Positions 4,514 through 34,573 of a stretch of 34,573 nucleotides of DNA are shown piece after piece (the first letter of the stretch is position 1; each line of letters opens with the position of its first letter). The DNA is from Ruminococcus sp. (lineage in GTDB: Bacteria > Bacillota > Clostridia > Oscillospirales > Ruminococcaceae). The notes beneath the pieces were generated by a model. The model did not search any database, was not told the DNA's origin, and saw only the letters and a list, made by a program, of their open reading frames with translations. The translations under genes were made by a program, and so were the position numbers. Location: the NCBI GenBank assembly GCA_017519415.1, contig JAFWSI010000043.1:1-34573 (forward strand), read 5' to 3'.

Positions 4514-4525
4514 GCCCAAGTCCTC

Positions 4526-12553: not shown

Positions 12554-12650
12554 ATGTATGTATGAGGAACGGTGAGCGAATATCGTGCCCGCCGTACCAT
12601 AGATTAGGGTTTTTCTGATAGATATACCTTTTTATTTGTTTGTTTTATTT

Positions 12651-12680
12651 CCCGCACGGCTTATGTGCGGGATATTTTTG
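12651..12680 (+). terminator. Terminator after the second sigma operon
   Basis: CCCGCAC (12651-12657) pairs with GTGCGGG (12665-12671), followed by ATATTTTTG. It lies about 100 bases after the stop codon and just before the next promoter. Confidence 0.75.
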
Positions 12681-12712
12681 TATATACGGCGCGGAGTTTT
12701 TGCGGAAAAATG

Positions 12713-12740
12713 TTGACACCTGCCGATAATAGGGTATAAT
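12713..12740 (+). promoter_or_regulatory. Promoter of the lipoprotein/RTX gene pair
   Basis: A perfect TTGACA (12713-12718) and TATAAT (12735-12740) are separated by 16 bases. The lipoprotein start codon is 43 bases downstream of the -10 box. Confidence 0.85.
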
Positions 12741-12783
12741 AGTATTATAACGACTTTTAAACGCAGTAACGAAAGGAGCATAT

Positions 12784-13614: not shown

Positions 13615-13634
13615 CTAAAGAAGGAGCTATTATT

Positions 13635-17958: not shown

Positions 17959-18673
17959 TGCTGCCACCTCCTGCTATGCCTGCGGTATGATCTGAGACTA
18001 TCTTTCCGTCGTTCAGGGTGATTATCCTGTCGGTCTCGGAAGCGAGCTCGCGGCTGTGGGTGATGAGCACTATGGTCTTGTTCTCCTCCTTGTGGAGCTT
18101 ATGGAATATATCCATAACCATATGTCCCGTCACGGAATCGAGGGCTCCCGTAGGCTCGTCGGCGAGTATTATGGAAGGGGAATTGGCAAGAGCTCTTGCT
18201 ATGGCGATCCTTTGCTTCTGACCGCCGGATAGCTCATTGGGATTGTGGTCTGCGCGGTCGCTCATCTCCACAAGCTCCAGGAGCTGTTCCGCTCTTTTCC
18301 TGCGTTCCTTTCTTCCGATGCCTGCATAGAGCATTGGAAGCTCTACATTCTCGATCGCATTCGTCCTTGAGATAAGGTTGAAGTTCTGGAAAACGAAGCC
18401 TATCTCGCGGTTGCGTATGGAGCTTAGTTCTGTATCGTCGAGCTGGGATATATCGTTGCCGTTCAGCATATAGATACCGCTGGTGGGACGGTCGAGAGCG
18501 CCGATTATATTCATGAGGGTGCTCTTGCCCGAACCCGAGGGGCCGACTATGGCTGCAAATTCTCCCTCCTGTATCTTAAGATCGATACCGTGGAGTATTT
18601 CCAGCTCGTTGGGCATTCCGATATAGAAACTCTTGACGATACTGTGCATGGAAATAACAGTTTTCATCGGCAT
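17945..18673 (-). CDS. MacB/LolD-type ABC transporter ATPase
   Basis: A protein of 242 residues. Walker A is GPSGSGKST (44-52), the Q-loop glutamine is in VFQNFNLI (Q96), the signature is LSGGQ (148-152), and Walker B with catalytic Glu is IILADEP (168-174); the H-loop reads LITHS. This is the LolD/MacB branch, which pairs with FtsX-type permeases. The ATG shares a base with the stop of the adaptor gene (TAATG), with GGAGGA just upstream, so translation is coupled. Energy-supplying subunit of the pump. Confidence 0.96.
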   Translation of the reverse strand: MPMKTVISMHSIVKSFYIGMPNELEILHGIDLKIQEGEFAAIVGPSGSGKSTLMNIIGALDRPTSGIYMLNGNDISQLDDTELSSIRNREIGFVFQNFNLISRTNAIENVELPMLYAGIGRKERRKRAEQLLELVEMSDRADHNPNELSGGQKQRIAIARALANSPSIILADEPTGALDSVTGHMVMDIFHKLHKEENKTIVLITHSRELASETDRIITLNDGKIVSDHTAGIAGGGSSVLH

Positions 18674-20139
18674 TATTCCTCCGGAGCGTCAAGGGATATG
18701 GTATCGCCGTCGGAAACGTTGCTCGGGCTGGTGAGCACGATGTCGCCAACCTTCAGGTCTCCCGTGAGTATCTCGGTGTAGTAGTCTCCTTCAAATCCGA
18801 TGGTGACCGTGCGCTTTGACAGGGTATATTTACCGTCTTCGGCAGGAGTTGCCACGTATACGAAATATCCGTCGTTCTCGCCGCCGATGACAGCGTCGTA
18901 GGGTACGCTCAGTGCGGCGTCGCGCTTGTCGAGGATTATCTTCACGCTGGCGGACATACCAATGAGAAGTTCGCTGTCCTTGTCGGAAATGCTTACCTCA
19001 ACCGTATAGCCTCCGGGAACGGCGGTGCCCAAAGCGCTGCTGCCCGCGTCGGAGGAGATTATCCTTTCGATACGGGTTACCTTGCCGTTGATTATCCTGC
19101 TGCCCGTTGCGGAGGTCTTTATCTCGGCGTTCATGCCCTCGTTTATCCTGAGTATGTCGGACTCGCTGATCTTGCCCGAGATTATGAGCTCGGAGGTGTT
19201 TTCTATGGTCATAAGGTTGTTTGACATGGGAACGCTGCCCTCGGAAATACTCAGCTGAGTAACAACGCCGTCCTTGGGGGCCTTTACGATACAGCTCTCG
19301 ATCTTTTCCTGAAGCTCCCTGAGCTGCTTGTCGGCGGAGCTGTCGCTTACGGTGTATTTCTCGGCGTCAATGGCGTCCTGTGCAGTCTGCACAAGGTTGT
19401 CGCCGGCCTTTACCGTATCGTTGTATGCGGATATAGCCGCGTCAACCGCGTCGTCATAGGCGGGCAGCTGAGAGTGTACAGAGTCCACCGTCAGGTCGAG
19501 AGCGGCTATCTTTGCCGTAAGATCCTTCCAGTTTTCGCGGGCTGCGTCGGCAGCCTCCTTGTCGTCGCCTGCTGCGAGCATTTCGTCGTAAGCTGCCGCA
19601 GCATCCTCGTTGAGGGAGTTGTAACGGTCCACAAGTATATTATAATCGTTGTATGCCTGATCTCTCTTGGACTTGGCAGTGTCAATGGCAGACTGAGCCT
19701 TTGCAATCATATCGGCTCTCTCCTGACGCGCCTTTGTGAGGTTGCGCTGATTGAGGCTGTGGCTGTAATTTGAAGCGCCCTCTGCCTTTGCGCTGCTGGA
19801 GGAGAGACTGTCGAACTGCTCCTTGAGGGAACTGCTGTCGAATTCGCAGAGAATATCGCCTTTTTTCACGCTGTCTCCTACCTTGACGTTGAGCTTGCTT
19901 ACCTTGAGAGCCTGTTCGCAGGCTATGCTGACCTTGTCGCTGCTGGAAACGTTTCCGGACAGGTTTACATAGTTCAGCAGATCGCGGTTCTGAACTGTAC
20001 CGCAGGTCTGTGAGTTCCATTTTATCATTGATGTGGCTCCGCCTATGGCGTTTCTTATCAGCATGACGATAACGCCGATGATCAGCAGAAGCACGATCAG
20101 GATAATGATGAGCTTTTTTCTTTTCTTTGATTTCTGCAT
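18673..20139 (-). CDS. HlyD/MacA-family efflux adaptor protein
   Basis: A protein of 488 residues. A basic N-terminus and one membrane helix (about 9-28) anchor it. A first half-lipoyl strand set (V-K-V-G-D-S-V-K-K-G-D-I-L-C-E-F-D) leads into a long coiled-coil hairpin (about 95-275) rich in Ala, Asp, Lys and Glu. The second half-lipoyl segment follows (IVKAPKDGVVTQLSISEGS), then beta-barrel and membrane-proximal domains. This is the standard order for MacA-like membrane fusion proteins. It is the first gene of the operon and has GGGAGGAG before the ATG. It would extend from the membrane and receive substrate from the permease. The substrate is unknown. Confidence 0.95.
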   Translation of the reverse strand: MQKSKKRKKLIIILIVLLLIIGVIVMLIRNAIGGATSMIKWNSQTCGTVQNRDLLNYVNLSGNVSSSDKVSIACEQALKVSKLNVKVGDSVKKGDILCEFDSSSLKEQFDSLSSSSAKAEGASNYSHSLNQRNLTKARQERADMIAKAQSAIDTAKSKRDQAYNDYNILVDRYNSLNEDAAAAYDEMLAAGDDKEAADAARENWKDLTAKIAALDLTVDSVHSQLPAYDDAVDAAISAYNDTVKAGDNLVQTAQDAIDAEKYTVSDSSADKQLRELQEKIESCIVKAPKDGVVTQLSISEGSVPMSNNLMTIENTSELIISGKISESDILRINEGMNAEIKTSATGSRIINGKVTRIERIISSDAGSSALGTAVPGGYTVEVSISDKDSELLIGMSASVKIILDKRDAALSVPYDAVIGGENDGYFVYVATPAEDGKYTLSKRTVTIGFEGDYYTEILTGDLKVGDIVLTSPSNVSDGDTISLDAPEE

Positions 20140-20433: not shown

Positions 20434-20462
20434 TTGACAAAAATGTAATGATATGGTATAAT
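20434..20462 (+). promoter_or_regulatory. Strong promoter of the FHA/kinase/surface-protein operon
   Basis: A perfect TTGACA (20434-20439) and a perfect TATAAT (20457-20462), with a TGG extension, are separated by 17 bases. Transcription would start near 20469, leaving a leader of about 115 bases. No other promoter is obvious up to 31427. Confidence 0.92.
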
Positions 20463-20584: not shown

Positions 20585-21916
20585 ATGCCGGGTATTACCG
20601 CAAAAGTCCTGTATCAGAACTGTGACGCTTTTCTTCAGGTCTCTCTCAGAAAGAAGGATCAGATCGACGAAAAGAGGCTCAGATTCATAAACGAAAACAC
20701 CGGAAAGGGTTTCCTGCGCGTGAAGTGGGAAAAAACTGCCGCGAGGAACGTGCTGAAGTACAAGGTAAGCAATATGACTGCGCTTTCTGAGTATATCAAG
20801 CAGACCATGACTCAGGAAACGTATTTCGGGATAATATGCCAGCTCCAGAAGATACTGGAGTATTGCAGCGAGGATAAGCTCTCTGCGGAGAACATTCTTC
20901 TGAATGATCCGAAGAACGTATATTACGATGTGGAAAAGAAGAAGGTCTACGTAGCCTATCTGCCGCTCTCGGTCAACGACCGCAAAGGCGGAGGAGCCGT
21001 AAAGCTGCTCTCAAAGCTGCATAAGAACGCAAATATAACCGTATCGGACGGCAAGGTTATAGAAAAGTACGGTTCCTTCATCGAGGACTACATCAAGAGC
21101 AGGAAGGACGGAAGCTTCACTCACAATCACCTGTATATACTGCTTCACGATATGCTTTCCATACCTGTTGACGAACTGGCGGGCAGCGCTTCGCAGGAGC
21201 AGCCTGAGCGGAAGCAGTCTTCCGGAGCCCCGGAGGATTCGGATCACACCATAATCGTCAACAGGAACAGGAGCATCGAGTGCCCTGCTTTCCTCAGGGA
21301 CGAGAACAACAGGGAGATACCCATAGACCATTTCCCGTTCACCATCGGCAGAAAGGCGGACAACGACCTTGCCCTTACGGACAGGGGGACCGTGTCCAAG
21401 GAGCACGCTGCCATAACCTATGAGAACGGTGAGTTCTTCATAGAGGACAGGAATTCGGCAAACGGCACCTTCCTCAATAGCTTTGCCGAGAACGGGCAGA
21501 GGATTACAAAGGAAAAGCTCGGAAGCGGGGACGTCATCTACATATATGATTCTCCCTTCGTGTTCAATATAAATTCAAGCGATTCGGCTACTGTTATAGT
21601 TGACGGCCGTAATGCGGGAGAGGCAAAGAAGTCTCCCAGCGGCAAGAAGCTGAAAAGCATAGCCTATCTTCTCAATTCCTCCAGCGGGGCAAAGATTCCG
21701 ATATTTGTGTATCCCTTTACCTGCGCGGAGATCTCGGGCCTTATCATAGGCAGGGAAAACAGCGGCAGCAGACACAGCATATATATCGAAAATATTTCAT
21801 GCACTTCCCTCAGCGTTGAGGACAGCGAGATGACAGAGGGCGAAAGGACAGACATTTTCTCGGGCTGTAATTTCCTCTATCACGGCATAGCCTATACTTT
21901 TTATGAAGAGAGCTGA
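20585..21916 (+). CDS. FHA-domain protein with N-terminal DUF6382-like domain
   Basis: A protein of 443 residues with no signal or membrane helix, so cytoplasmic. Residues 1-195 look like the DUF6382 domain found with FHA domains in Firmicutes. A good FHA domain follows at about 245-328: FTIGRKADNDLAL (Arg256), VSKEHAAI (Ser271, His274) and DRNSANGTFLN, all the phosphothreonine-contact positions. A second, degenerate FHA-like fold (about 362-440) has LIIGREN but lacks the rest. Two stretches, H-T222-I-I-V and A-T336-V-I-V, resemble phosphothreonine docking sites. First gene of the operon; next are a phosphatase and a kinase, so it is the likely reader of the kinase's phosphorylation. ATG preceded by AAGGGGTG. 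Confidence 0.93.
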   Translation: MPGITAKVLYQNCDAFLQVSLRKKDQIDEKRLRFINENTGKGFLRVKWEKTAARNVLKYKVSNMTALSEYIKQTMTQETYFGIICQLQKILEYCSEDKLSAENILLNDPKNVYYDVEKKKVYVAYLPLSVNDRKGGGAVKLLSKLHKNANITVSDGKVIEKYGSFIEDYIKSRKDGSFTHNHLYILLHDMLSIPVDELAGSASQEQPERKQSSGAPEDSDHTIIVNRNRSIECPAFLRDENNREIPIDHFPFTIGRKADNDLALTDRGTVSKEHAAITYENGEFFIEDRNSANGTFLNSFAENGQRITKEKLGSGDVIYIYDSPFVFNINSSDSATVIVDGRNAGEAKKSPSGKKLKSIAYLLNSSSGAKIPIFVYPFTCAEISGLIIGRENSGSRHSIYIENISCTSLSVEDSEMTEGERTDIFSGCNFLYHGIAYTFYEES

Positions 21917-21921
21917 CGGAT

Positions 21922-22701
21922 ATGAAATATTTATTCTCCTATGTTACTACAGAGGGCGCTGTCAGAAAGGTAAATCAGGATTCTCTTTTTATTGCCACTG
22001 CGGAATATAAGGGAGAAGAGATATTCTTTGCTGCGGTCTGTGACGGCGTCGGAGGACTTGCGGGCGGCGAAAAGGCCAGCGCCTATGTCTGCAAGCGCAT
22101 GAACGACTGGTTTGTCTCGGAGCTTCCGGAGCTCCTGCGCAGCGGCGCCAAGATACTGAATATACGCCGTTCCATGGACGACAGGCTCCACGAGCTCAAT
22201 ACAAGGATAAACGACTATGCCGGGCGTACCGGCTCGGATATGGCGACCACATATACCTCCGTACTCATACTCCCGGAATTCGGGAAAATGCTGACGGCTC
22301 ATGTGGGGGACTCAAGACTGTACAGGATTACCGATAAGGAGATCGCCGTGCTCACCTCGGATCATTCCGTTGTGGGGCAGGAGATCAGGAGCGGAAAAAT
22401 AACTGCCGAGATGGCGGGCAGCGACCCGAGGCAGAACCAGCTCACCAACTGTATCGGCGCAGGCCTTGAGGATACCGCCTATGATTACAGCATAAGAGGG
22501 TACGGTACGGACGAATGCTATATGCTGTGTTCCGACGGCTTCCGCAAGAAGGTCTCGGAGACCGAGCTCAGGGAGGCTCTGTGTCCCTCTGCAAACAATG
22601 ATGAAAAGGCAATTTCCGGAAATCTGAAAAAGCTGACCAATAAGGTCATCCAGTGCGGAGAAAGGGATAATATCACCGCCCTTCTTGTAAAGCTCTGCTG
22701 A
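21922..22701 (+). CDS. PP2C-family Ser/Thr protein phosphatase
   Basis: A protein of 259 residues covering one whole PP2C domain. Metal-binding and catalytic motifs are in order: K-V-N-Q-D-S (Asp20), CDGVGGLAGGE (Asp41, Gly42), LTAHVGDSRLYRI, M-L-C-S-D-G-F and G-E-R-D-N-I-T-A. These manganese/magnesium enzymes remove phosphate from Ser/Thr and usually oppose the kinase encoded next to them. The gene starts five bases after the FHA gene with only a weak ribosome binding site, which suggests coupled translation. Cytoplasmic. Confidence 0.96.
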   Translation: MKYLFSYVTTEGAVRKVNQDSLFIATAEYKGEEIFFAAVCDGVGGLAGGEKASAYVCKRMNDWFVSELPELLRSGAKILNIRRSMDDRLHELNTRINDYAGRTGSDMATTYTSVLILPEFGKMLTAHVGDSRLYRITDKEIAVLTSDHSVVGQEIRSGKITAEMAGSDPRQNQLTNCIGAGLEDTAYDYSIRGYGTDECYMLCSDGFRKKVSETELREALCPSANNDEKAISGNLKKLTNKVIQCGERDNITALLVKLC

Positions 22702-22717
22702 AAGCGAGGAGATCTTT

Positions 22718-24409
22718 TTGCTTAACGAAGGCTTTGTCCTTGAAAACAGATACAAGATCGTTAATATTGCGGGAAAAGGCGGCACATCAATTGTCTACAG
22801 GGCACTGGACCTGAGGGCCAACAACGCTCAGCGGGCCGTTAAGGAGGTAAAGAAATCCAACGGCACGGACGCCTACAACGCCCGTCAGGAGTCCCTTCTC
22901 ATCAAGGAATTCTGTGAGAAGGACGTAAAGAATTCCTTTTTCCCGAATATAATCGAGATCATTGACAATAAACCCGACGCCCTGTATATAGTTCAGGACT
23001 ATATCGACGGAGTATCCATGGAAAAGCTGCTGGCGTACTATCCTTTTCCGCATAAGACCGTGCTCCGCTATGCCAAGGACATCTGCTCTGTCATGTCCTT
23101 CATACACAAGTGCGGCATGATACACAGCGATATGAAGCCCGACAATATCATGGTGGTGAGGAATGACGTCAGCTTTGAAAACGAAAAGCGCCCCGACAAT
23201 TTCGGCAAGCTCAAGTTCATAGACTTCGGCTCGGTCATCGAAAGGCGTGAGGGTACATTTGCCTATACCCCTGCCTATGCCGCTCCCGAGCAGTTCCGCA
23301 AGGAGGAGCTTGACGAAAAGACGGACATATTCAATATGGGAGCCACCTTCTATCATATGCTGACGGGCAGGAAGCCCATGAACGTTGCCGTCAACGGCAA
23401 GCTGGTGAGCTCCGAGGAGCGCTTTGTGTTCGACAAGGGCGCCAATGCGGGACTTGTCCGTATAATACGCAAGTGCGTAAGCGACGACAAGTCAAAGAGG
23501 TACCGCTCCTGCGACGAGCTGTACGAGGATCTGTACAAGACCGAAAACCATACCTATATCAGGACAACGGGCATAATCGCGGGACTTTCCGCTCTCTGTC
23601 TCGGCCTTTCCTTTTTCTCGGGAGCAATGGCGAGAAAGGTAAAAAGCGAGAACTTCATCCCCCTTGTGGAAAAGGCGGAGAACGCAAGCGATTACGATAC
23701 AAGGGCAGCCGCCTTTGAGGACGTCATCAATGCGGACGGCTCCTATGCGGACGCCTATCTGAAGCTGATAGAGCTGTATGAAGCGGACGACGTGTTCACG
23801 GCAGATGAGGCGGAGCAGATACTCAGACTGGTGAACGAAAACATAAACGAGCTGAAAAAGAATCCCCGGTATGGTAAGGTTGCCTACGAGCTGGGAATGC
23901 TTTACTGGTACTATTATTTCTACGGTGCCGAGAACGGCAAGCAGAGCGGCACTACGGGAAAGATCGCTTCCGTGAAATGGTTCAAGGAGGCTCAGACGGA
24001 TATATTCAGGGAACAGGATCCCGACAGATACGACATCGCCAAGGTGTACTGTTCTATCGGAGAGTTCTACTCGCTGACCCAGAAGAAGGAGAACGAGCTC
24101 CTGAAAAAGAATTACTCCGCCGATCTGTGGGAGAGCATGATCTCTCTCAATGAAATGGTGGAGACTGCCAATGCGGGCTCAGAGATAATAATCCTCGAGA
24201 CCTATAAGACCCTTATAAATCTCGAGAACAGCAATATCAATGAATTTGCGAAATCGGGCATTTCCTATGAGGCTCAGACGGAGCTGCTCGATGATATAAA
24301 GAACAAGACCGAAAAGATCAATGCCGAAGAGGGAACGGCTGCGGAAGCGAAGGAATATATCCTCACCTTCTATGACAGGATCCTTGAGAGCATTAAGGGC
24401 TCGGTATAA
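22718..24409 (+). CDS. Transmembrane Ser/Thr protein kinase
   Basis: A protein of 563 residues that starts at TTG with GAGGAG six bases upstream. The kinase domain (about 10-272) has a glycine loop G-K-G-G-T-S (19-24), Lys42 in RAVKEVKK, the catalytic loop HSDMKPDN (136-143), D-F-G (169-171) and A-P-E (189-191). The usual His-Arg-Asp has Ser for Arg, so it is a non-RD kinase with activation-loop control probably altered. A membrane helix (about 283-304) is followed by a helical outer domain of about 255 residues that looks TPR-like, not the PASTA repeats of PknB. It therefore probably senses something other than muropeptides. Phosphorylation targets are likely the FHA protein and the small membrane protein of the same operon. 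Confidence 0.94.
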   Translation: MLNEGFVLENRYKIVNIAGKGGTSIVYRALDLRANNAQRAVKEVKKSNGTDAYNARQESLLIKEFCEKDVKNSFFPNIIEIIDNKPDALYIVQDYIDGVSMEKLLAYYPFPHKTVLRYAKDICSVMSFIHKCGMIHSDMKPDNIMVVRNDVSFENEKRPDNFGKLKFIDFGSVIERREGTFAYTPAYAAPEQFRKEELDEKTDIFNMGATFYHMLTGRKPMNVAVNGKLVSSEERFVFDKGANAGLVRIIRKCVSDDKSKRYRSCDELYEDLYKTENHTYIRTTGIIAGLSALCLGLSFFSGAMARKVKSENFIPLVEKAENASDYDTRAAAFEDVINADGSYADAYLKLIELYEADDVFTADEAEQILRLVNENINELKKNPRYGKVAYELGMLYWYYYFYGAENGKQSGTTGKIASVKWFKEAQTDIFREQDPDRYDIAKVYCSIGEFYSLTQKKENELLKKNYSADLWESMISLNEMVETANAGSEIIILETYKTLINLENSNINEFAKSGISYEAQTELLDDIKNKTEKINAEEGTAAEAKEYILTFYDRILESIKGSV

Positions 24410-24424
24410 AGCGGGAGGTGCGGA

Positions 24425-24838
24425 ATGGATTCATTTTACTGGGAGATACTGTCCGAGATATTTCTCGGGATAGGCATCGTACTCCTGCTTGTGGCCGTGT
24501 TCCTTGCTTTCAGGTACAGGATAATATCCAACATAATATCCGATGTTGCTTCACAGAAGCGGATACCGGCCATACCGGATATGCCTTCATTGGCAATGCC
24601 CGAGTTCTCAAAGGACACAGCGGGCGATTATCCGGTCATTACGGGCTCCTCCGAGCCCTTCGCCGATGAAAGCGGCGAGATAACGGTAGTTGTAGCCCGC
24701 GGGAAAAAGCAGGCTGACGACGGGGCGACGGTGGTCGTCGGCAGGGCAGAGGAAGTTGAGAAAAGCGATTTCAGGATAACAAGGAATATAATCCTTATAA
24801 ACGCTGATCCGGACGTGATAGACGGTGGCAGTATATGA
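24425..24838 (+). CDS. Small one-pass membrane protein with paired T-V-V-V motifs
   Basis: A protein of 137 residues. One hydrophobic helix (about 12-30, FLGIGIVLLLVAVFLAF) is followed by a basic segment, which puts the C-terminal part in the cytoplasm. That part contains two near-repeats: E-I-T87-V-V-V-A-R-G and G-A-T102-V-V-V-G-R-A, each after acidic residues. I do not recognise a family. The start has GGGAGG well placed, and the stop overlaps the next start by four bases (ATGA). Position between the kinase and the cohesin-like gene, plus the Thr motifs, suggest a substrate or adaptor that carries phosphorylation to the membrane; this is inference. Confidence 0.85.
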   Translation: MDSFYWEILSEIFLGIGIVLLLVAVFLAFRYRIISNIISDVASQKRIPAIPDMPSLAMPEFSKDTAGDYPVITGSSEPFADESGEITVVVARGKKQADDGATVVVGRAEEVEKSDFRITRNIILINADPDVIDGGSI

Positions 24839-25740
24839 CGGTGAGAGGATTTGCGTTTAGGGGAATTGCGGCAGTTCTGACCGCCTGTGAGCTTTGTGTG
24901 CCCTGCGTCGGAGCCGTCACCTATGAGGCTCCCGATAATATCGAGCTCTCCATAGGAGATGTGGAGATACCTAAGGAAGGGCTCAGCGGTGATACGCTGG
25001 TGGAGGTACCGTTATACATCGGCAGCAATCCCGGCTTCACCTCACTGAGCATAGTGGTGGCGCTTGAAGGTCCGCTGCGTTATGACGACGATCACGACGT
25101 TGACACGAACGTGCTTGCGGGCGTGAACATTTACAGATGCAACAATACTGACAATATAGTATCCGCCTGCTTTGAGGCGGGCTCGGATACCTATTATGAC
25201 GACGGAAAGTTCGGCTGGCTCCGCGTCATAGTTCCCGCGGACATATCGGCGGGAAGATACGGCATATCCTTCCTGACGGAATGCGATATGTACAGCCTGG
25301 GGATATACACGCACAACCGCAAGGAAGCAAGATTCGGTGCAGCAAGCTTCTCTGTGCTTGGCGGCGGAAGCATAACCGTTACCGAGCCGCAGACGGAGCC
25401 TCCCGCAGGAGATCAGCCTGCCGAGAAAGCCGGGCAGCCTGTCATGGAAGCAGGCGGTACGGCTGAGGCAGCGGCTGAGGCAGTTGTAGAAGCTCCTGCC
25501 GCCTCTGCGACGGCGACATCGGTAACGGCAGCGGGGAGTGCTGTCACATCAACGTCCGGAACAAGCGCCACGACTGCCGTTACAACGGAGAACGTGACCA
25601 CTTCGACCGAACGAACGTGGATTAGATCGAATGAAGACAACAGAAGCAGGAATATGCTGGTTCCCATTATCGCAGCGACCATTCTGGCTCTGGGAGCGGC
25701 AGTAGCTTTTATTGCAAAAAAGGGAGGAAAATCCAGATGA
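24835..25740 (+). CDS. Membrane-anchored cohesin-like domain protein
   Basis: A protein of 301 residues. A signal peptide (to about residue 26, ending C-V-G-A) precedes a beta-rich domain (about 36-178) with E-V-P-L-Y-I-G-S-N-P-G-F-T-S-L-S-I-V-V and A-G-R-Y-G-I-S-F, the strand pattern of cohesin modules, which bind dockerins. A Pro/Ala/Thr-rich linker (about 180-268) leads to a C-terminal membrane helix (about 272-293) and a short basic tail, so the module faces outwards close to the membrane. It overlaps the genes on both sides by four bases. The cohesin assignment rests on pattern only and the module is diverged; a related carbohydrate-binding sandwich is the main alternative. Confidence 0.85.
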   Translation: MTVRGFAFRGIAAVLTACELCVPCVGAVTYEAPDNIELSIGDVEIPKEGLSGDTLVEVPLYIGSNPGFTSLSIVVALEGPLRYDDDHDVDTNVLAGVNIYRCNNTDNIVSACFEAGSDTYYDDGKFGWLRVIVPADISAGRYGISFLTECDMYSLGIYTHNRKEARFGAASFSVLGGGSITVTEPQTEPPAGDQPAEKAGQPVMEAGGTAEAAAEAVVEAPAASATATSVTAAGSAVTSTSGTSATTAVTTENVTTSTERTWIRSNEDNRSRNMLVPIIAATILALGAAVAFIAKKGGKSR

Positions 25741-28700
25741 ATAACGGACTCTTTGATCTGAAAAGGAAGGCAGCCTTTGCGGCGGCTCTCGTTTTCGTTT
25801 CGCATACTTTTGGCAGTATGCCGCTGGGAGAGGTCTCGGCAGCCGTTACTGCCTTAAGGACTGACATTTCACAGGATACGGGGGCTTCCGGAGATGAGGA
25901 CGTGCAGGATCCGCCTGCGGCCACGACGACAACAGCTGCGACTACTACGACAACAGCTCCGATAACAACGACGACAACTGCAACCACGACGACAGCTGCG
26001 ACAACAACTACAACAGCTGCCACTACGACGGCAGCCACCACTACTGCCGCAGCGAGTGTGACCTATGTTATAAAGCTGGAAAGCGGCTCCTCTGACGTCA
26101 ATGAATTCATGGAGCTTGCAGCCGGGATAATCGGCAGCCGGAACTGGTCGTCCTTCAGGTTCGACGGTATAGATGAAGCGTCCTTCACTCTGTCAAAAGC
26201 AGCGGATATAAACGACGATGATATTATTATCGGGAAAAAGCTCTTCAGACAAAACAACAGCACTGTCAAAAACGGTGAGATCGTACTGAAATACGATACC
26301 TATTTCAGTTTTTCTTACGAAGATGACAAGGCTATCGAAGGAATAAGGATAGCCTCTCCGAGCAGCGACGGTTACTACAAGGCGGGTTCAACGGTAAAGT
26401 TCGTTCCCGAGGGGCCTTACTTTCTGAGCGGTGACGCGGCTTCACTGGATTATACGGTAAAAGGCAGCTTCTTTGCCAAGAAGGAAGGAGCCTTTGAAAG
26501 CGACTACGACCTTGTGGTATCTGACGGAGCCGGAAACGAGTCGAGAACAAGAGTGGCTGCAAAGAGGTTTTCCATAAAGGCAAAGCCTTACTATATCGTC
26601 AGATTCAACGGTGAAAAACAGAAGACTCAGGAAAAATATACCTTCAAATGGCTTGATGCTGAGAAAGTTACGATAGAAAAGATCGACCTTCAGGCGATGG
26701 TCGTATCGGACGGCTCGCATTCCCACAGATATGACAATCTTGTAAGAGGAACGCTCTCCATGAGCGAGCTCCTTTCCAATGAGCACTTCAAATACAAGAA
26801 GGACGCGGAATTCTCCTTTACGGGAATAGAGACCAAGGTGCGTGTTACCGCTTCCTTTGAGGGTGATGAAGGCCGGGACGATGAAAGCTATATCGTTTAT
26901 GTTGAGAAGATAGGCGATGATTACTTTATACGTGTCCCTTACCTTGAAAGCGACGGATATATTCTTGATCGGTATACATACAGCGGAGAAACCGTAAGGG
27001 AATTCAGCAATATGTATGGGGATATTCTGGCAAACAACAGATACGTCCTTATAAAGAGCGAGGAGGAAGGCGGCTCTGTTTCCGTCGTATATAAAAAGAT
27101 AGACAAAAATGACAAGCAGTACACATTTGCGCCTAAGGATTATCTTTACGAAAGAAGCAGCGGCTGCTATGAGGTGCCGGGAGATATGGCCAGTGCAGGT
27201 CTTATGGATTTCGACAGCGCCTTCTACGGCAGCACCATGCTCTACGATTTCTTCAGCAGATCGGACAAAACGGGATTAAGAAACGGAAAGTACCCCATAA
27301 GCTCCGAAAAGAACTCCTTCGTGCTCAATACCGATAACCTTAATGACCCGGATTTCATACTGGCGAGCAATATCCTGAGCTCCGACGGCAGTACGAGCCT
27401 TAAGGAGAGCCTTGAGGGCAGCATATGCTTCTACATTGACAGGAAGGCGCCCACCGTGACTATAAAGCCTGATGACGCGAAGGACGGAAAATGGGTAGGC
27501 GAAAAGGGACTTGACTTTACCCTTGATATTTCCGACAGGGAGGACTATCCTGTCTCAATGGAGGGCGAGCTCTCTCACGAGAAGAAGGAGATCAAGGAGA
27601 TATACGATAAGTTCATCAATGCCGAACATGATGACGGGCGTGAGATAGCGTCGGTAGTTGTGGGCGGATACCGCTATGACAGACCTGCGGGCGGCTGGGA
27701 TTCAGTTAGCTCGGTGGAGGGCTATGTTGAGAGCAGCGCTCTGAGGGAAGCCGAGGCGGAGGCTGTTCAGCTCCTTATGGATCTTGACGTCAAGAAGCTC
27801 GGCAGCAAATACTCCTCCCGAAAGGAAAACTACCGTTACCACAGAGAGCTTCTCAGAAGCGGTATTTCCGACCTGATCGTTGATGTGAACGATTACTTTG
27901 CCGGCAGGATCGATGCCGCTTCGTCTACGTCTTCAAAGGAGAAGCTTGCAAGGCAGCAGGGTGTGCTCATAAATGCGCTGAAGGCCTACAGAAATGCGGA
28001 GTCAGCACAGAAGGCTCCCGATTATGTACCTGTGCTGTCCTTTGACAAGTCGACCGGAAAATTCAATATAAATATCACAGCTGCCGGGAGCTTCAAAAAG
28101 AAAAACCTTGATGAGAAGATAGCTGTATTTGCAATAGACAACAGCAACAACTCCAGCTACGATCCGGAACACGAGGAAAGGATATGGCTCAGGATTGACG
28201 ATACTCCTCCCGTTATCAAGGATATAAACGTACAGACCGACAATGCCGGGACTGTTAAAAAGGGCAGCGATACCGCATATATCCTTAAGGCAGGAAGCAG
28301 CATCAGTGCCGATATAAGCGATATATCAGGCGGATCAGGTTCAGGCATCGCATCTGCGGAATGGAATATCTCCGACGAGGTACTCGGCGGAGCAATGAGA
28401 CCGGAGGACGGCAGATATGTATACAGAGTAACGGCTGAGGAGCTCAGGAACAAGAATCTTATGGCAAAGATAGCTGTCAGGGCTGAGGATATAGTCGGAA
28501 ATACCGCGTCACTCAGCAGCAGCTTCAATGTTATCATAGATACGGCCAGGCCGGAAGCAGGCATAACAAATGCCTCTGCGGCGGGAAGCTGGTACACCGA
28601 GAAGTCTGACGGCGGACTTGAGAAAAAGTGGTTCAGGGGCTTTGAGAATATAAGGCTTGCCCTGAAAGCTTCCGACAAGAATCCGGATATAGCCTCGGGA

Positions 28701-31427
28701 ATAAAGTCCCTTGTGCTTAAGGTAAACGGCAGGGCAACGGACATTGACCTTGAAGAAAAGGGCATCAGTGCGGAAGCGCTGGGGAACGGCTCCTACTATC
28801 TTTCCTTTGCACAGGAAGAAGAGCCCGATAAGTTCCGTGCCGTACTGAAAAGCTCGGTGGACGGAGAATTCAGTCTCGACTTTGGCGAGGTATTCAGTGT
28901 AAAGACCGAGGGCGCTCCTGAGGAGCTGGGCTGTGTGGATATAGGCCTTGAGGCTGTGGATAATGCCGGCAATACAAGCGCTGAGGCTAACGAAAAGGTA
29001 TATGTTGATCTTTTCGCACCTGTTGTGGAGTCTGTAAGGTACGGACGCGACGAGCTCATAAGCCGCAGCGGCGGAAGCGAATACGTGCTGTTTGCACACA
29101 GCTCGGCAGATGTTTCCGTAAGGGTCCGCGACAACGGCCCTTCTGCGGGAATAAGCGATATAAAGGTATCCCTCATCGGCGCTGACGGAAATCCCGTCTC
29201 TGCGGACGTACCAAGAAGAAAGGGCATGGACGCTGACGAGTGGATAGTTACGGTGCCCGTCAACTTCAAGGGTACAATGGAGCTGACTGCCGTTGACGCA
29301 TCGGGAAGGACATCCGATACTGTCAGGACCCTCGGCATGATCACCGAGAACGGTGAACGCCATGCACAGACCTCGGGTCTGGACATAAAGCTGCCAAAGA
29401 CCGATTACAAGGACAAGGCGGGCAGACCCCTTTACAGCTCCGATGTAAAGGCTGTGCTGGTGGCTGAGGACAGTTTCTCCGGTATCAGAGAGGTAGGAGT
29501 TTCACTTTCGGGAGCTCCCGAAAAGGTATTCGTGAGGGACGAAAACGGCAGCTTCACAGGCGACGACCGTATAAAGTGGACCGACAGCTTCGGCGAGCTC
29601 AACCTTATAAACGGACTTACAGGAGAGATCGTTGTTTCCGAGGAAGGAAACGACCAGTTCATCTCCATGAGGCTGAAGGATAACGCGAGAAATCCCGAGG
29701 ATAATTCGGGAAGAGCGGAAGGCTTCAGCATAGACAAGACAGCTCCCGTGATAAACGTTGCCTTCACAGACGGAAACGGCTCTGCGGATCAGGAATTCAG
29801 GAACATCTACAAGGGCGCAAGGACGGCGGTCATAACCGTCAGGGAAAAGAACTTTGACGAGTCGCTGGCAAACGTTCTTGTAAACGGCGAAAAGCGCACA
29901 GTGAAATGGGATCCTCCCGCACCCGGCACCGAGGACTACGATAACGCAGTCTACAGGGCAGAGGTTCCCTTTGAAGCCGACGGCACCTACAGGCTCACCG
30001 TACAGTGCAAAGATATGTGCGGCTGGGGCGCAGAGGACTATGTTTCCGATGAATTCATCATAGACAGAACAGCTCCCGCGCTGAATGTGGGCTTTGACAA
30101 GAATATAGAGAACGACCATTTCTATAATGGTCCCGTAACGGCAACCTTCAGGATCTCCGAGAACAACTTCGACCCCGGAAGAGTATCCGTATCCGGCACC
30201 TACAACGACAAGGCGGATAATTTCCCGAAGCCCTCCGCATGGACTCGTTCGGGTAGTGATTATATCACTACCGTAAAGTTCGATAAGGACGGCGAATATA
30301 CCGTAAGGATCTCGGGACGTGACAAGGCAGGAAACGACTTTGAGTCATACAGCGGAAAATTCTGTATCGACAGTCAGGCTCCCAAGATAGCCTTTGAGGA
30401 CGTTGGAAAGTCCAACAAGGAAAAGGAGATCAGGCCGCATATCAGGTTCAACGACGTGAATCTTGACAAGGAAAGCATAAAGATAGAGCTTCAGGGCGCC
30501 AACAGGGGAAGATCCCTTGATTTCGGCGGTGAATTCCGTGAGAACTCAGGAGGCTACGAGTATGTATTCGATAATATCCCCGAGGGCGCTGAGTTCGATG
30601 ATATATACACCATCAAGGCCAGCGCCAAGGATAATGCCGAAAATAAGATAACCAAGGACTTCCGCTTCTCGGTAAACAGATACGGCTCCAATTTTGTGCT
30701 CAACGACGCGACAAAGGCGATCTCCGGCAAGTATATCTCCAGTGAACAGGACGTTATCATAACCGAATACAATACCGACAGGCATGACGGCGACTACAGC
30801 GTGTTCATCACCAAGGATTCGGAGATGACAGAGCTGAAGGAGGGCGTTGATTATGAAGTAAGGTACAGCGGCGGCGAAGACGAGTGGTCGGAATACCGTT
30901 ATGTGATCTATGCCAAGAACTTCACAGCCGACGCAAGATATACCGTTTCCATACATTCTGTGGATCAGGCGGGCAATATCAATATCAGTACATCTGATAA
31001 GAAGAAGGCGGAGCTGACATTCTTTATCGACAAGACCAAGCCTCTGTGCATACCGATAAATATCACGGAAAACAGCGCGTACAAGGGCGAAAAGCATACG
31101 GTGCACCTTGCTGTTTCCGATAACCTTATGCTTAAGGATATAAGCGTATACATAGACGGCGAGAGCGTAAGAGCTCATCAGATAAACGATGAATGCGTAT
31201 TCAATATACCGAATTCAAAGCATTCTCAGGATATAAAGATCGTTCTTACGGATATGGCCAACAATCAGATCGAGTACAACTATAAGAATATCCTTGTTAC
31301 CACAAGCGTTATACGAATCGTGGCGCACAAGACGTGGTTCAAGTTCGCCTGCGGAGGAGCAGCCCTCCTTCTGAGTGCAGGCGCGTTCGTGCTCGGCAAG
31401 AGAAGGAAGGCTAAGCGCTTCCTGTGA
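25737..31427 (+). CDS. Giant Ig-repeat surface protein, membrane anchored
   Basis: A protein of 1896 residues. A signal peptide (about 1-36) and a Thr/Ala-rich tract (about 62-105) are followed by an array of Ig-like modules. Module borders recur as I-D-[KRD]-T-x-P variants near residues 563, 820, 932, 1090, 1332, 1442, 1544 and 1763, each followed by a beta-strand start; this is the usual bacterial Ig-like tandem pattern. Spacings vary, so other domains are inserted, such as a helical block near 615-765. A C-terminal helix (about 1868-1887) and a basic K-R-R-K-A-K-R tail anchor it; there is no LPXTG motif. The start overlaps the preceding gene by four bases. A long stalk or adhesin is likely; its ligand is unknown. 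It is the last gene of the operon. Confidence 0.93.
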   Translation: MNNGLFDLKRKAAFAAALVFVSHTFGSMPLGEVSAAVTALRTDISQDTGASGDEDVQDPPAATTTTAATTTTTAPITTTTTATTTTAATTTTTAATTTAATTTAAASVTYVIKLESGSSDVNEFMELAAGIIGSRNWSSFRFDGIDEASFTLSKAADINDDDIIIGKKLFRQNNSTVKNGEIVLKYDTYFSFSYEDDKAIEGIRIASPSSDGYYKAGSTVKFVPEGPYFLSGDAASLDYTVKGSFFAKKEGAFESDYDLVVSDGAGNESRTRVAAKRFSIKAKPYYIVRFNGEKQKTQEKYTFKWLDAEKVTIEKIDLQAMVVSDGSHSHRYDNLVRGTLSMSELLSNEHFKYKKDAEFSFTGIETKVRVTASFEGDEGRDDESYIVYVEKIGDDYFIRVPYLESDGYILDRYTYSGETVREFSNMYGDILANNRYVLIKSEEEGGSVSVVYKKIDKNDKQYTFAPKDYLYERSSGCYEVPGDMASAGLMDFDSAFYGSTMLYDFFSRSDKTGLRNGKYPISSEKNSFVLNTDNLNDPDFILASNILSSDGSTSLKESLEGSICFYIDRKAPTVTIKPDDAKDGKWVGEKGLDFTLDISDREDYPVSMEGELSHEKKEIKEIYDKFINAEHDDGREIASVVVGGYRYDRPAGGWDSVSSVEGYVESSALREAEAEAVQLLMDLDVKKLGSKYSSRKENYRYHRELLRSGISDLIVDVNDYFAGRIDAASSTSSKEKLARQQGVLINALKAYRNAESAQKAPDYVPVLSFDKSTGKFNINITAAGSFKKKNLDEKIAVFAIDNSNNSSYDPEHEERIWLRIDDTPPVIKDINVQTDNAGTVKKGSDTAYILKAGSSISADISDISGGSGSGIASAEWNISDEVLGGAMRPEDGRYVYRVTAEELRNKNLMAKIAVRAEDIVGNTASLSSSFNVIIDTARPEAGITNASAAGSWYTEKSDGGLEKKWFRGFENIRLALKASDKNPDIASGIKSLVLKVNGRATDIDLEEKGISAEALGNGSYYLSFAQEEEPDKFRAVLKSSVDGEFSLDFGEVFSVKTEGAPEELGCVDIGLEAVDNAGNTSAEANEKVYVDLFAPVVESVRYGRDELISRSGGSEYVLFAHSSADVSVRVRDNGPSAGISDIKVSLIGADGNPVSADVPRRKGMDADEWIVTVPVNFKGTMELTAVDASGRTSDTVRTLGMITENGERHAQTSGLDIKLPKTDYKDKAGRPLYSSDVKAVLVAEDSFSGIREVGVSLSGAPEKVFVRDENGSFTGDDRIKWTDSFGELNLINGLTGEIVVSEEGNDQFISMRLKDNARNPEDNSGRAEGFSIDKTAPVINVAFTDGNGSADQEFRNIYKGARTAVITVREKNFDESLANVLVNGEKRTVKWDPPAPGTEDYDNAVYRAEVPFEADGTYRLTVQCKDMCGWGAEDYVSDEFIIDRTAPALNVGFDKNIENDHFYNGPVTATFRISENNFDPGRVSVSGTYNDKADNFPKPSAWTRSGSDYITTVKFDKDGEYTVRISGRDKAGNDFESYSGKFCIDSQAPKIAFEDVGKSNKEKEIRPHIRFNDVNLDKESIKIELQGANRGRSLDFGGEFRENSGGYEYVFDNIPEGAEFDDIYTIKASAKDNAENKITKDFRFSVNRYGSNFVLNDATKAISGKYISSEQDVIITEYNTDRHDGDYSVFITKDSEMTELKEGVDYEVRYSGGEDEWSEYRYVIYAKNFTADARYTVSIHSVDQAGNINISTSDKKKAELTFFIDKTKPLCIPINITENSAYKGEKHTVHLAVSDNLMLKDISVYIDGESVRAHQINDECVFNIPNSKHSQDIKIVLTDMANNQIEYNYKNILVTTSVIRIVAHKTWFKFACGGAALLLSAGAFVLGKRRKAKRFL
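25917..26055 (+). repeat. Thr/Ala codon tract (linker)
   Basis: ACN and GCN codons dominate in runs such as A-T-T-T-T-A-A-T-T-T-T-T. Synonymous codons are mixed, so it is a selected linker rather than a pure microsatellite. Such linkers are typical of ruminococcal surface and cellulosomal proteins. Confidence 0.85.
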
Positions 31428-32664: not shown

Positions 32665-34573
32665 TCATGCTATTTCCACGAAGCTGCTGAACTTGCCCAG
32701 CAGGAATTCCTGAATGCGTGCTGCGTCGGATGAAGTAACGCCGCCGCCGTTTACATCAGCGTTTGCCTTGCCGACAGCCGTGATGTGGTGATCGTCGCTT
32801 CCTTCGAGACCGTACTTGTTGGGATTGGCTATGGACTGCATGATGAGTACAGCGTCAGCCATATCAACAGAACCGTCGCAGTTGGTGTCGCCCAGCTTTG
32901 TGGGAGTTATCTGCGTGGTGGTAGTTGTGGTAGTGGTTGTAGTCGTTGATGTAGTTGTCGTGGTAGTTGTGGTTGTTGTGGTTGTCGTTGCGGGAGGAGC
33001 CTGTGAAGCTATATAATCATTGATCTCTCCTGCAAGGAATTCACCGATCTTCTTATAGCCTGTGCCGTTGGGGTGGAGCTGATCTCCGCTTATGTCGTTC
33101 ATGCCGTCAAGACAGCCGTGAACGTCTGCAAATATAACATTCTTGCCCTTGCTTGCGTATTCCTGAGCAACGCTCTTTACGGTATTGTTATAGTTGCCGA
33201 TCTTCTGCGTATTTCCGCCGTATGCCGTGTGCTCCGGAACTGAACAGAGGAAGATGACTCCGCCCGAAGGCATATCTGCCAGCATATAGTCAAGCATAGC
33301 GCGGAGATCTGATGCGCATGCGTCCATTGAACGGTTAGCGGTCAGGTCATTGGTACCGATCATGAGCAGGATAATATCAGGCTGAGCCTGTTTAACGGCG
33401 TTATTGTTCTTGAGTTCGTTGTACAAGCTGCCCTTGCCGCCCTGCTGCTGTCCCCAGCTGGGAACTTCCTTGATCTGGTATCCGCTGAAGCCTGCATGGT
33501 TATCGTCGTATGTGATGCCGTTTGCAGAAGCGCTGTCTCTTCCGTTTGGTCCTACCATATCGATCTTGGTGTAGCCCATCTTCTGGAGTGCACTGTACAG
33601 ATACTTTCTGTAGCCGCCTGTTTCGCCGTCGCCGTTGGTGATAGAGTCGCCGGCAGGCATGATCTTTATGGTCTTGTTCTTGTCGATGTTGCCCGAGGGC
33701 TGATTAACTGTTGTAGTCTGATCGGAAGCTCCGACCTTGCCCTTGCCTGTCTCTACGGACGACTTTACGCCTGACTTTGAAGCCTGAACGTTATCGAGGT
33801 AGAAGTCAGTAAGGCTGTCGGGTGACTCAACATAGAGTGTGCATGATGTAGCGCCGGTAGGAATGGTGAAGGAGGTATTCTCGATCTTTGTCCACTCGCC
33901 GCTCTTTGCAGTCACGGTGTCAACCTCAACGTATTCTGTACCGCTGCTTGATTCAACCTGAACGGTCATCTTCATGCTTGCTGAATCGCCGCTCTTCTGG
34001 AGTACGGCAGCGCTGAAGCTGTATGTGCCGCCTGCTGTGAAAACATCGGGATCAAGGTCTATGGAAGCGCCGTTCCAGTTATTGTTTCTTCCGCTTACGA
34101 AGAGAGAGTTGCCGCCTTCGTAGTAATCTGTGGAAACTATATCTACGGAAGCCTGGCCTCTGCCCTTCCAGCTGCCTGCGCCCGATTCAAAATCGCTTAC
34201 CCAGTAGTTGCCGTTTGCGTCGGGTTCTACCTGAGTCTTTGTAGTTGTTACGATCGGATCATTGCCGCCTGAAGTAGTTGTGGTCGGAACATCGCCGAAG
34301 CTGATCTTCTTTACATTTGCGGAGCCGTTGGATCTGTAGCCCTCGATGTTAAGGGATACCTCATAAAGTGTACCCGACATGTCAAGGCCTGCCTTGCTCC
34401 ATGCGTCAAAATGCTTGGATACGTCGATAGTACCCTGCATATAGTTTGTGGTATTGTTCTGGGAGCCGCTTCTCTGACGAACGCTCCAGTACTGCGGGAA
34501 GGTTGCTGTGCCGTCCAGCGAAGGCTGGTTGTAGCGCATTGTCTTCCTGATGTCGTAGGTGTTGCCGTTCAGA
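32665..34573 (-). CDS. Xylanase GH11 - CBM22 - CE3 acetylesterase - dockerin, 5' end missing
   Basis: The frame stays open to the window edge, so the N-terminus lies outside; at least 635 residues are present. The order is: C-terminal half of a GH11 xylanase (34573 to about 34290; Y-D-I-R-K-T-M-R-Y-N-Q-P-S and Y-W-S-V-R-Q-R), a Thr/Gly linker, a CBM22 module (about 34215-33780; W-K-G-R-G and S-G-R-N-N-N-W-N-G), a CE3/SGNH acetylesterase (about 33680-33010), a Thr tract (32914-32988) and a type I dockerin (GDTNCDGSVDMADAVLIMQS and a second loop). The esterase shows G-D-S-I-T-N-G, G-T-N-D and D-Q-L-H-P-N-G. It would cut xylan chains and remove acetyl groups within a cellulosome, with its dockerin docking on a scaffoldin. 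R. flavefaciens makes enzymes of this architecture. Promoter off window. Confidence 0.95.
   Translation of the reverse strand, partial: LNGNTYDIRKTMRYNQPSLDGTATFPQYWSVRQRSGSQNNTTNYMQGTIDVSKHFDAWSKAGLDMSGTLYEVSLNIEGYRSNGSANVKKISFGDVPTTTTSGGNDPIVTTTKTQVEPDANGNYWVSDFESGAGSWKGRGQASVDIVSTDYYEGGNSLFVSGRNNNWNGASIDLDPDVFTAGGTYSFSAAVLQKSGDSASMKMTVQVESSSGTEYVEVDTVTAKSGEWTKIENTSFTIPTGATSCTLYVESPDSLTDFYLDNVQASKSGVKSSVETGKGKVGASDQTTTVNQPSGNIDKNKTIKIMPAGDSITNGDGETGGYRKYLYSALQKMGYTKIDMVGPNGRDSASANGITYDDNHAGFSGYQIKEVPSWGQQQGGKGSLYNELKNNNAVKQAQPDIILLMIGTNDLTANRSMDACASDLRAMLDYMLADMPSGGVIFLCSVPEHTAYGGNTQKIGNYNNTVKSVAQEYASKGKNVIFADVHGCLDGMNDISGDQLHPNGTGYKKIGEFLAGEINDYIASQAPPATTTTTTTTTTTTTSTTTTTTTTTTTQITPTKLGDTNCDGSVDMADAVLIMQSIANPNKYGLEGSDDHHITAVGKANADVNGGGVTSSDAARIQEFLLGKFSSFVEIA
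32914..32988 (-). repeat. Poly-threonine codon tract (linker)
   Basis: About 25 consecutive codons are ACN, broken by one Ser codon, between the CE3 esterase and the dockerin. All four Thr codons except rare ones are mixed. The flexible linker lets the dockerin reach its cohesin. Confidence 0.88.

What the first reader, a model, noticed from the sequence alone, without database searches (positions are those of the whole stretch)
20585..31427. Kinase/phosphatase/FHA module welded to a cohesin-like anchor and a giant surface protein
Seen: six genes in one direction behind a consensus promoter, with gaps of 5-16 bases and then two successive 4-base ATGA overlaps joining the small membrane protein, the cohesin-like protein and the 1896-residue Ig-repeat protein. 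Known: kinase, PP2C and FHA genes often cluster. Inferred: the tight coupling to two surface proteins suggests the phosphorylation module controls, or reads, the state of a surface structure for adhesion or cellulosome attachment. The usual partners of such modules (PASTA domain, cell-division genes, type VII secretion ATPase) are absent.
Basis: partly seen in the sequence, partly recalled or inferred. Interest (0 to 1): 0.85.

Follow-up and report, generated by a model that had tools for sequence, protein, structure and literature searches.

The report
Secretion-system control module without its motor
In a group of fibre-degrading gut bacteria, a six-gene set that elsewhere sits beside a protein-export machine has been kept intact without that machine's motor, and its sequence suggests an on/off switch driven by phosphate tags on a short membrane protein.

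Summary
The six genes are real, one-directional and tightly packed. They match the accessory set of the type VII secretion subtypes T7SSe/T7SSj (Garrett et al. 2024, PMC11217815): J (DUF6382-FHA), F (PP2C), D (membrane kinase), K (one-helix protein) and I (giant Ig-like protein), plus a divergent cohesin-like protein not mentioned in the sections read. In 5 of the 15 named relatives read, the set is linked to an EssC-type ATPase. In the window and its 7 closest named kin (Ruminococcus flavefaciens clade) it stands alone. In 7 of these 8 genomes no EssC-like ATPase was found, and in 8 of 8 no WXG100 reached the Pfam cut-off. All 8 loci carry the same 12/12 promoter, and three close strain pairs show purifying selection. 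New here: K's cytoplasmic tail, and J's linkers in this clade, carry T-[VIL]-[VIL] motifs (K tails: 30 observed, 3.7 expected, 0 of 2000 permutations as high), candidate phosphothreonine docking sites for J's FHA domain.

The parts
20434..20462 (+). promoter TTGACA-N17-TATAAT, 12 of 12 consensus positions
   Evidence: a 12/12 promoter 73-122 bases upstream of the J start used in all 8 clade loci
20585..21916 (+). J: DUF6382 + FHA + C-terminal domain, no membrane helix (TseJ/TsjJ-like)
   Evidence: Pfam PF19909 2.9e-11 and PF00498 8.7e-18; FHA residues G255, R256, S271, H274, N293, G294 invariant in 15 rows; no TM
21245..21259 (+). J motif HTIIV (Thr222), candidate phosphothreonine site before the FHA domain
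   Evidence: D-H-T-I-x-V kept in all 8 clade rows within a variable linker
21587..21601 (+). J motif ATVIV (Thr336), candidate phosphothreonine site after the FHA domain
21922..22701 (+). F: PP2C/PPM phosphatase (TseF-like)
   Evidence: PF13672 2.8e-11; N18 Q19 D20, D41 G42, G129 D130, D205 G206, D249 N250 invariant in 9 rows
22718..24409 (+). D: Ser/Thr kinase, one TM helix (residues 286-304), C-terminal domain inferred to lie outside (TseD-like)
   Evidence: PF00069 1.8e-32; K42, E58, D138, K140, N143, D169-F170-G171 invariant in 15 rows; TM; about the first 50 positions of the outer-domain profile match TPR structures, best 2.7e-8
24425..24838 (+). K: small one-helix membrane protein with cytoplasmic tail (TseK-like)
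   Evidence: TM residues 11-29; follows D in 15 of 15 named loci
24680..24694 (+). K tail motif ITVVV (Thr87), candidate phosphothreonine docking site
24725..24739 (+). K tail motif ATVVV (Thr102), candidate phosphothreonine docking site
24770..24820 (+). K C-terminal conserved block
   Evidence: alignment A3, coordinates
24835..25740 (+). cohesin-like protein, signal-like N-terminus, Thr/Ser/Ala-rich stalk and C-terminal TM
   Evidence: profile match to a solved cohesin 5e-8; no Pfam cohesin; hhalign negative; TM 275-293
25737..31427 (+). I: 1896-residue Ig-like surface protein with C-terminal TM (TseI-like)
   Evidence: PF19077 Big_13 1.6e-06; TM 1868-1886; 22-25% identity to T7SS-linked homologues

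Best explanation
The six genes are the J-F-D-K-I accessory set of a T7SSe/T7SSj-type secretion system, extended by a cohesin-like protein. In the R. flavefaciens clade the set is kept as a stand-alone unit without a linked EssC ATPase and WXG100 proteins. Proposed working: kinase D, with a domain outside the membrane, phosphorylates threonines in the T-[VIL]-[VIL] motifs of K's cytoplasmic tail and of J's linkers. The FHA domain of J binds the phosphorylated K tail and so is brought to the membrane beside D, K and the anchors of I and the cohesin-like protein. Phosphatase F resets this. J's own two motifs on either side of its FHA domain could compete with K and hold J closed. In T7SS-bearing relatives the same switch would act on EssC, whose N-terminal FHA domain can carry the same binding residues. 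Here it would set the state of the I/cohesin-like envelope structure alone. Shown: gene order, homology, promoter, purifying selection, no core found in 7 of 8 clade genomes, motif enrichment, conserved catalytic and FHA residues. Inferred: phosphorylation of the motifs, the J-K contact, and what the outer proteins do.
For: Gene set matches T7SSe/j in PMC11217815. 15 of 15 named loci read have J-F-D-K; 10 of 15 show the cohesin-like gene (in L083 only a 66-residue ORF) and 11 of 15 show I. An EssC-type gene is linked in L076, L077, L078, L080 and L081. Over-cut-off WXG100 occurs in exactly these 5 of 14 genomes and in 0 of 8 clade genomes. FtsK (839-891 residues), the internal control, was found in 14 of 14. 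The eight stand-alone sets form one clade, 100/100 support. K tails: 30 T[VIL][VIL] against 3.7 expected in 14 non-redundant of 19 sequences, 0 of 2000 permutations as high, highest 11. In a 10-sequence subset 23 of 27 hydrophobic pairs follow Thr, while Ser, Ala, Asp, Glu, Asn, Gly, Lys and Gln show no excess. J linkers: two motifs in 8 of 8 clade rows. dN/dS 0.015-0.27 in three strain pairs.
Against: No phosphorylation data were found or made. Motif support is uneven: G206 has none in K; G138, G292 and L077 have one each (p 0.39, 0.11, 0.51); L078 has three (p 0.07); J of L077 and L078 has none, and of L076 one. The own genome is only 75% complete. G298 (RUI288), one of the 8, has on another contig a 1728-residue tandem FtsK-domain (EssC-like) ORF with two WXG100-like neighbours below the cut-off, so a type VII core that could serve the set is not excluded there. 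The strict FHA pattern was found in 2 of 4 EssC proteins tried. DUF6382 showed no detectable link to EssB or kinases. YukD was not sought genome-wide. No structure could be predicted.
Confidence: 0.62

Rival explanations
1. One reading: the kinase module controls a surface adhesion or cellulosome-attachment structure made of the cohesin-like and Ig proteins.
For: All six genes stay together in 8 of 8 clade loci. The cohesin-like profile's best solved match is a cohesin at 5e-8; weaker matches at 0.0013-0.042 are further cohesins and two 'cell-wall anchoring proteins' (cohesins of R. flavefaciens as I recall; the table gives no organism). The own genome has 15 cohesin matches at E up to 0.01, and dockerin genes lie in the window.
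Against: Cohesins occur in 14 of 14 genomes, including G304-G307 whose set lacks the cohesin-like gene. No dockerin in the six proteins. Pfam cohesin matches 0 of 10 members and hhalign against 11 cohesins of these genomes gave probability 0.5%.
Confidence: 0.2
2. An ordinary, complete T7SSe whose ATPase, WXG100 and ubiquitin-like genes lie elsewhere and were missed.
For: Own genome 75% complete. Relatives L080 and L081 have the six genes plus the core. G298 has an EssC-like and WXG100-like locus on another contig.
Against: EssC and WXG100 searches of all 8 clade genomes, four of them from named strains, found an EssC-like gene only in G298 and no WXG100 over the cut-off, while FtsK was found in all and EssC homologues at 30% identity were found in other genomes. 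Extra weak FtsK-domain matches in G000 and G297 proved HerA-like, not EssC. A core companion gene (329 residues) was absent from the 7 relatives; G000 has a partial match, 33% identity, 1.3e-15.
Confidence: 0.12
3. Decaying leftover of a lost secretion system with no present function.
For: No core found in 7 of 8 clade genomes.
Against: All six frames open in the clade loci (I truncated by the locus end in L071), 12/12 promoter in 8 of 8, dN/dS 0.015-0.10 for J, F and D and at most 0.27 for the others in three strain pairs.
Confidence: 0.05
4. The T-[VIL]-[VIL] motifs are not phosphorylation sites but short strands that dock onto a beta-sandwich without phosphate.
For: The motif is hydrophobic and strand-like. 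The FHA region of YukB was shown to bind YukC in E. coli (PMC9600267, passages seen).
Against: The residue before the hydrophobic pair is Thr in 23 of 27 cases and Ser once, in 10 sequences; a plain strand would not require Thr. A kinase and a phosphatase gene stand beside K in all 15 named loci, with the kinase active site conserved in the 15 rows aligned.
Confidence: 0.25

Closest known systems
T7SSe (Garrett, Higginson, Palmer 2024, PMC11217815; abstract, sections 8, 9, 14, 15, 16 and passages read; figures and supplements not seen)
   Same: J with DUF6382+FHA, F PPM phosphatase, D one-helix kinase, K one helix with unstructured cytoplasmic stretch, I large protein with Ig-like domains and C-terminal helix
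   Different: No ATPase C found in 7 of 8 and no over-cut-off WXG100 in 8 of 8 clade genomes, no second small one-helix gene H, no ubiquitin-like B at the locus; an added cohesin-like protein; the threonine motifs are not in the sections read
T7SSj (same paper)
   Same: A, B, C, D, F, I, J, K with no H; D's outer domain is said to be TPR, as part of the D profile here suggests
   Different: Core genes not found here; described from Clostridium; the ATPase subtype of the relatives could not be assigned
Agrobacterium T6SS switch: kinase phosphorylates a membrane protein, which then binds an FHA protein (as told in the Discussion of PMC11217815; original not read)
   Same: Membrane kinase, membrane substrate, FHA reader
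   Different: Different secretion system, Gram-negative, no sequence relation tested
GarA/OdhI FHA switches (mechanism recalled; FHA similarity)
   Same: FHA protein with a threonine motif in its own flexible part
   Different: Those regulate metabolism and are soluble (recalled); no DUF6382, no membrane partner

Membership tests
T7SSe/T7SSj | EssC-like ATPase (TsxC) | tested here: not met
   None found in the own genome (75% complete) or in 6 of 7 clade relatives; G298 has one 1728-residue EssC-like ORF on another contig. Linked to the set in 5 T7SS-bearing relatives.
T7SSe/T7SSj | WXG100 protein (TsxA) | tested here: not met
   0 of 8 clade genomes over the Pfam cut-off; 5 of 14 in all, the 5 with linked EssC
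T7SSe/T7SSj | ubiquitin-like TsxB | tested here: inconclusive
   No match at the 7 clade loci; no genome-wide search was made
T7SSe/T7SSj | J: DUF6382 + FHA | tested here: met
T7SSe/T7SSj | D: membrane kinase with helical outer domain | tested here: met
   the outer domain is only partly matched to TPR
T7SSe/T7SSj | F: PPM phosphatase | tested here: met
T7SSe/T7SSj | K: one helix with short unstructured cytoplasmic stretch | tested here: met
   (disorder and orientation judged from composition, gaps and charges, not predicted)
T7SSe/T7SSj | I: large, signal peptide, Ig-like domains, C-terminal helix | tested here: met
   the signal peptide was judged by eye and did not pass the hydropathy threshold
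T7SSe | H: a second small one-helix protein | tested here: not met
   Only one small one-helix gene at the locus; not sought elsewhere in the genome
Cohesin | match to the Pfam cohesin model | tested here: not met
   0 of 10 members; no match at this place
Cohesin | profile similarity to solved cohesins | tested here: inconclusive
   5e-8 to 10uv; of 7 matches under 0.1, four are labelled cohesin and two cell-wall anchoring protein; hhalign to local cohesins negative
Cohesin | binds dockerin | not testable with these tools
   needs a binding assay
PASTA kinase (PknB/Stk1) | extracellular PASTA domains | tested here: not met
   NCBIfam match covers residues 5-279 only, 122.9 against cut-off 450 bits; no PASTA in Pfam
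EssB/YukC | sequence relation of DUF6382 or D to EssB | tested here: not met
   hhalign against one EssB sequence: probabilities 0.1% and 0.4%; D's topology is like EssB's

The most novel reading that the evidence does not exclude
A T7SS-derived but ATPase-free envelope machine: a kinase/phosphatase/FHA switch that reads a multi-site phosphothreonine array on a small membrane protein and through it sets the state of a giant Ig-like protein and a cohesin-like receptor. The machine would have broken away from protein export and been kept as a separate contact or receptor system in a cellulosome-building clade.
Probability: 0.35. Interest if true: 0.78.

Novelty: new variant of a known kind. Interest (0 to 1): 0.62.

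Why it matters
The paper defining T7SSe and T7SSj suggested phosphorylation control but, in the sections read, named no substrate. The K tail offers a concrete, testable one. A clade that keeps the switch and the outer proteins while apparently lacking the motor gives a natural experiment on what these accessory proteins do by themselves, including whether the giant Ig protein is a secretion conduit or has its own role.

Tried and rejected
DUF6382 as an EssB-type pseudokinase: no support by profile search of solved structures or hhalign against one EssB and against kinase D; only 1 of 199 phylum genomes gave an EssB at 1e-10, so the test is thin.

Tad-pilus link of the second DUF6382-FHA gene of the own genome: rejected, ATP synthase genes lie near it. 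Tad-like genes do stand by such modules in three other genomes.

Cohesin-like gene as a marker of cohesin-bearing genomes: rejected, cohesins are in 14 of 14 genomes.

HlyD/ABC neighbours (16633-20139) as part of the set: directly upstream only in L075 among the 7 clade loci; in L072 a HlyD homologue ends about 6.8 kb away; L069 and L074 hold under 2 kb upstream, so they cannot tell.

Further FtsK-domain matches as hidden EssC genes: rejected for G000:C30 and G297:C19 (HerA-like, DUF87) and for the about 1940-residue ORF of G000:C2 (helicase); other weak rows were not opened.

Placing the ATPases of the relatives on a subtype tree was not done, since no named reference ATPases were fetched.

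Full report
What is in the window. The window is the whole of contig C44 of an incomplete genome (74.87% complete, 75 contigs). The six ORFs claimed exist at the stated places, with gaps 5, 16, 15, -4, -4 and a perfect promoter at 20434-20462. Pfam names FHA plus DUF6382, PP2C and protein kinase, nothing over the cut-off for the next two, and Big_13 for the last. Hydropathy gives no helix in J or F, one in D (286-304), one in K (11-29), signal-like and C-terminal helices in the cohesin-like protein, and a C-terminal helix in I; the N-terminus of I did not pass the threshold.

What it is. A search of 297 family genomes with J and the fetched surroundings showed that in a same-genus genome (G135) the same six genes run into two unknown genes, a YukD-like gene, a 1566-residue FtsK/SpoIIIE-FHA ATPase (EssC type) and two WXG100-type proteins (Pfam; one of the two WXG100 matches and the YukD match lie below the curated cut-offs). 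G028 is the same as far as its contig goes; the start of the ATPase is at the contig end. The only paper found with DUF6382 is PMC11217815, which defines T7SSe and T7SSj with these components: J (DUF6382-FHA), F (PPM phosphatase), D (kinase), K (one-helix protein) and I (large Ig-like protein) (abstract, passages and sections 8, 9, 14, 15, 16 read). The cohesin-like protein is not mentioned in those sections.

Named relatives. One scan of genome contigs with the J alignment gave 52 loci. I read the first 15 (L069-L083, E at most 2e-26); the other 37 match only around the FHA domain and were not used. All 15 have J-F-D-K in that order (L082 ends within K). The cohesin-like gene is seen in 10 of 15 (in L083 only as a 66-residue ORF) and I in 11 of 15. 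L076 has I but no cohesin-like gene; L077, L078 and L079 have neither nearby. Seven loci (L069-L075: R. flavefaciens Y1, YL228, YAD2003, MA2007 and three metagenome genomes) have J at 58-62% identity and all six genes (I truncated in L071). The other eight have 26-33% identity.

The motor is missing. In the 14 genomes (13 behind loci plus the own), an EssC-type ORF of 1485-1574 residues is linked to the set in 5 (G304, G305, G306, G308, G309; in G309 across a contig break), and WXG100 passes the Pfam cut-off in the same 5 only. G307 has a 1401-residue EssC-like ORF on another contig. Of the 8 clade genomes, 7 show no EssC-like gene. G298 has a 1728-residue ORF with two FtsK stretches on another contig, next to two WXG100-like ORFs below the cut-off. 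FtsK was found in 14 of 14, so the search works. Further FtsK-domain matches over the cut-off in G000 (C30) and G297 (C19) are HerA-like. A 329-residue protein that stands before EssC in G135, G028 and G241 was found strongly in 4 of 14; the own genome has a partial match (33%, 1.3e-15). EssC was also not found in G138, another genus with J-F-D-K-x-I. A tree of F plus D (20 rows) puts the 8 stand-alone sets in one clade (100/100) beside T7SS-linked sets (some branches are long, and the root is for drawing only). The simplest reading is one loss of the core, but a gain of the core by the others is not excluded.

It is kept. Three strain pairs of the clade give dN/dS 0.015-0.10 for J, F and D, 0.08-0.27 for K, 0.26-0.27 for the cohesin-like gene and 0.15-0.24 for I. 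All 8 loci have the 12/12 promoter 73-122 bases before the J start used. The 4-base overlap of K and the cohesin-like gene is kept in 6 of the 7 clade loci measured, and that of the cohesin-like gene and I in 5 of 7 (L071 not measured there). The slow cytoplasmic and faster outer genes fit a conserved switch with surface parts under varied selection (inference).

A candidate switch. D keeps the catalytic residues in 15 of 15 rows, with HSD or YSD in place of HRD (7 rows). F keeps the Asp and Gly residues expected of PP2C in 9 of 9 rows (their role is recalled). J's FHA keeps G, R, S, H, N, G in 15 of 15, the residues that bind phosphothreonine (recalled). K's tail varies in length but carries repeats of T-[VIL]-[VIL]: 30 in 14 non-redundant of 19 sequences against 3.7 expected, highest of 2000 permutations 11. 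In a subset of 10, 23 of 27 hydrophobic pairs are preceded by Thr, although Thr is 8.9% of the tail. J has HTI[ILV]V before and [AP]TV[IVL][VI] after its FHA in 8 of 8 clade rows. Against: G206 has no K motif; G138, G292, L077 and L078 are not significant one by one; J of L077 and L078 has none and of L076 one. I propose that D phosphorylates these threonines, J-FHA reads K, and F resets. The Discussion of PMC11217815 recalls a like switch in a type VI system. In T7SSb, the FHA part of YukB binds the YukC pseudokinase domain (PMC9600267, passages seen).

The cohesin-like protein. Its profile finds a solved cohesin at 5e-8. Of 7 matches under 0.1, four are labelled cohesin, two cell-wall anchoring protein (cohesins as I recall) and one caltractin. 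But Pfam's cohesin model matches none of 10 members, and hhalign against 11 cohesins of these genomes gives 0.5%. I call it cohesin-like, membership open. Pfam cohesins are in 14 of 14 genomes, so the gene does not mark cohesin-bearing genomes.

Novelty. Searches for DUF6382 (one paper), T7SSe/TseI (first 20 of 136 listed), R. flavefaciens with type VII secretion (one review, listing only), FHA/phosphothreonine/T7SS/kinase (5 papers: two opened, three seen as listing), T7SS with cohesin and dockerin (two papers, listing only), R. flavefaciens with FHA or kinase terms (first 8 of 416 listed) and T7SSe/T7SSj names since 2024 (one paper) showed, in what I saw, no report of a stand-alone set or of the threonine motif. 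The library lacks most subscription papers and holds no preprints, and the supplements of PMC11217815 were not read.

Noticed in passing
window 10186-16106: ECF sigma factor followed by a protein with a weak EF-hand match, an unknown gene and an Mbeg1-like lipase with RTX repeats; the lipase resembles two proteins in the T7SS region of G206 (L047, 3e-8 and 3e-15).
   Followed up: partly
window 32665-34572 (-): GH11 part, CBM4_9, GDSL esterase and dockerin, running off the contig end; also a serpin-dockerin protein at 5201-7111 and a dockerin at 2495-4519.
   Followed up: partly
L045:13158-14237: Second DUF6382-FHA-like gene of the own genome, near ATP synthase genes; no relative of F or D was matched in that locus.
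   Followed up: partly
L049, L050, L053: DUF6382-FHA-like genes with PP2C (and a kinase in L049 and L050) near T2SSF genes, with Flp-like and DUF5702 genes in L050 and DUF5702 in L053, suggesting that the same switch also serves Tad-like pili.
   Followed up: partly
L041:374-2313 (-), L038:604-2507 (-), L037:2848-4769: Conserved pair of about 316 and 329 residues before YukD-EssC or EssC; the second has a weak match to the Rep3 initiator winged helix. Possible new T7SS companions.
   Followed up: partly
L051:10747-20000: J-F-D-K, a 150-residue protein (several helices by eye) in the cohesin-like slot, then I, in G138, where no EssC was found: perhaps a second stand-alone lineage.
   Followed up: partly
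L039:3134-3895 (-), L043:16369-17124 (-): J of 251-253 residues that lacks the N-terminal DUF6382 part, still followed by F, D and K.
   Followed up: no
L144:4135-13546 (-) (G298:C18): 1728-residue tandem FtsK-domain ORF with two WXG100-like ORFs and a TPR protein nearby in RUI288: a different type VII-like locus.
   Followed up: partly
window 25915-26035: 39-base tandem repeat coding the Thr-rich N-terminal stalk of I.
   Followed up: no
G000:C67:2179-2403 (L033): Weak WXG100-like match inside a 1261-residue ORF.
   Followed up: no
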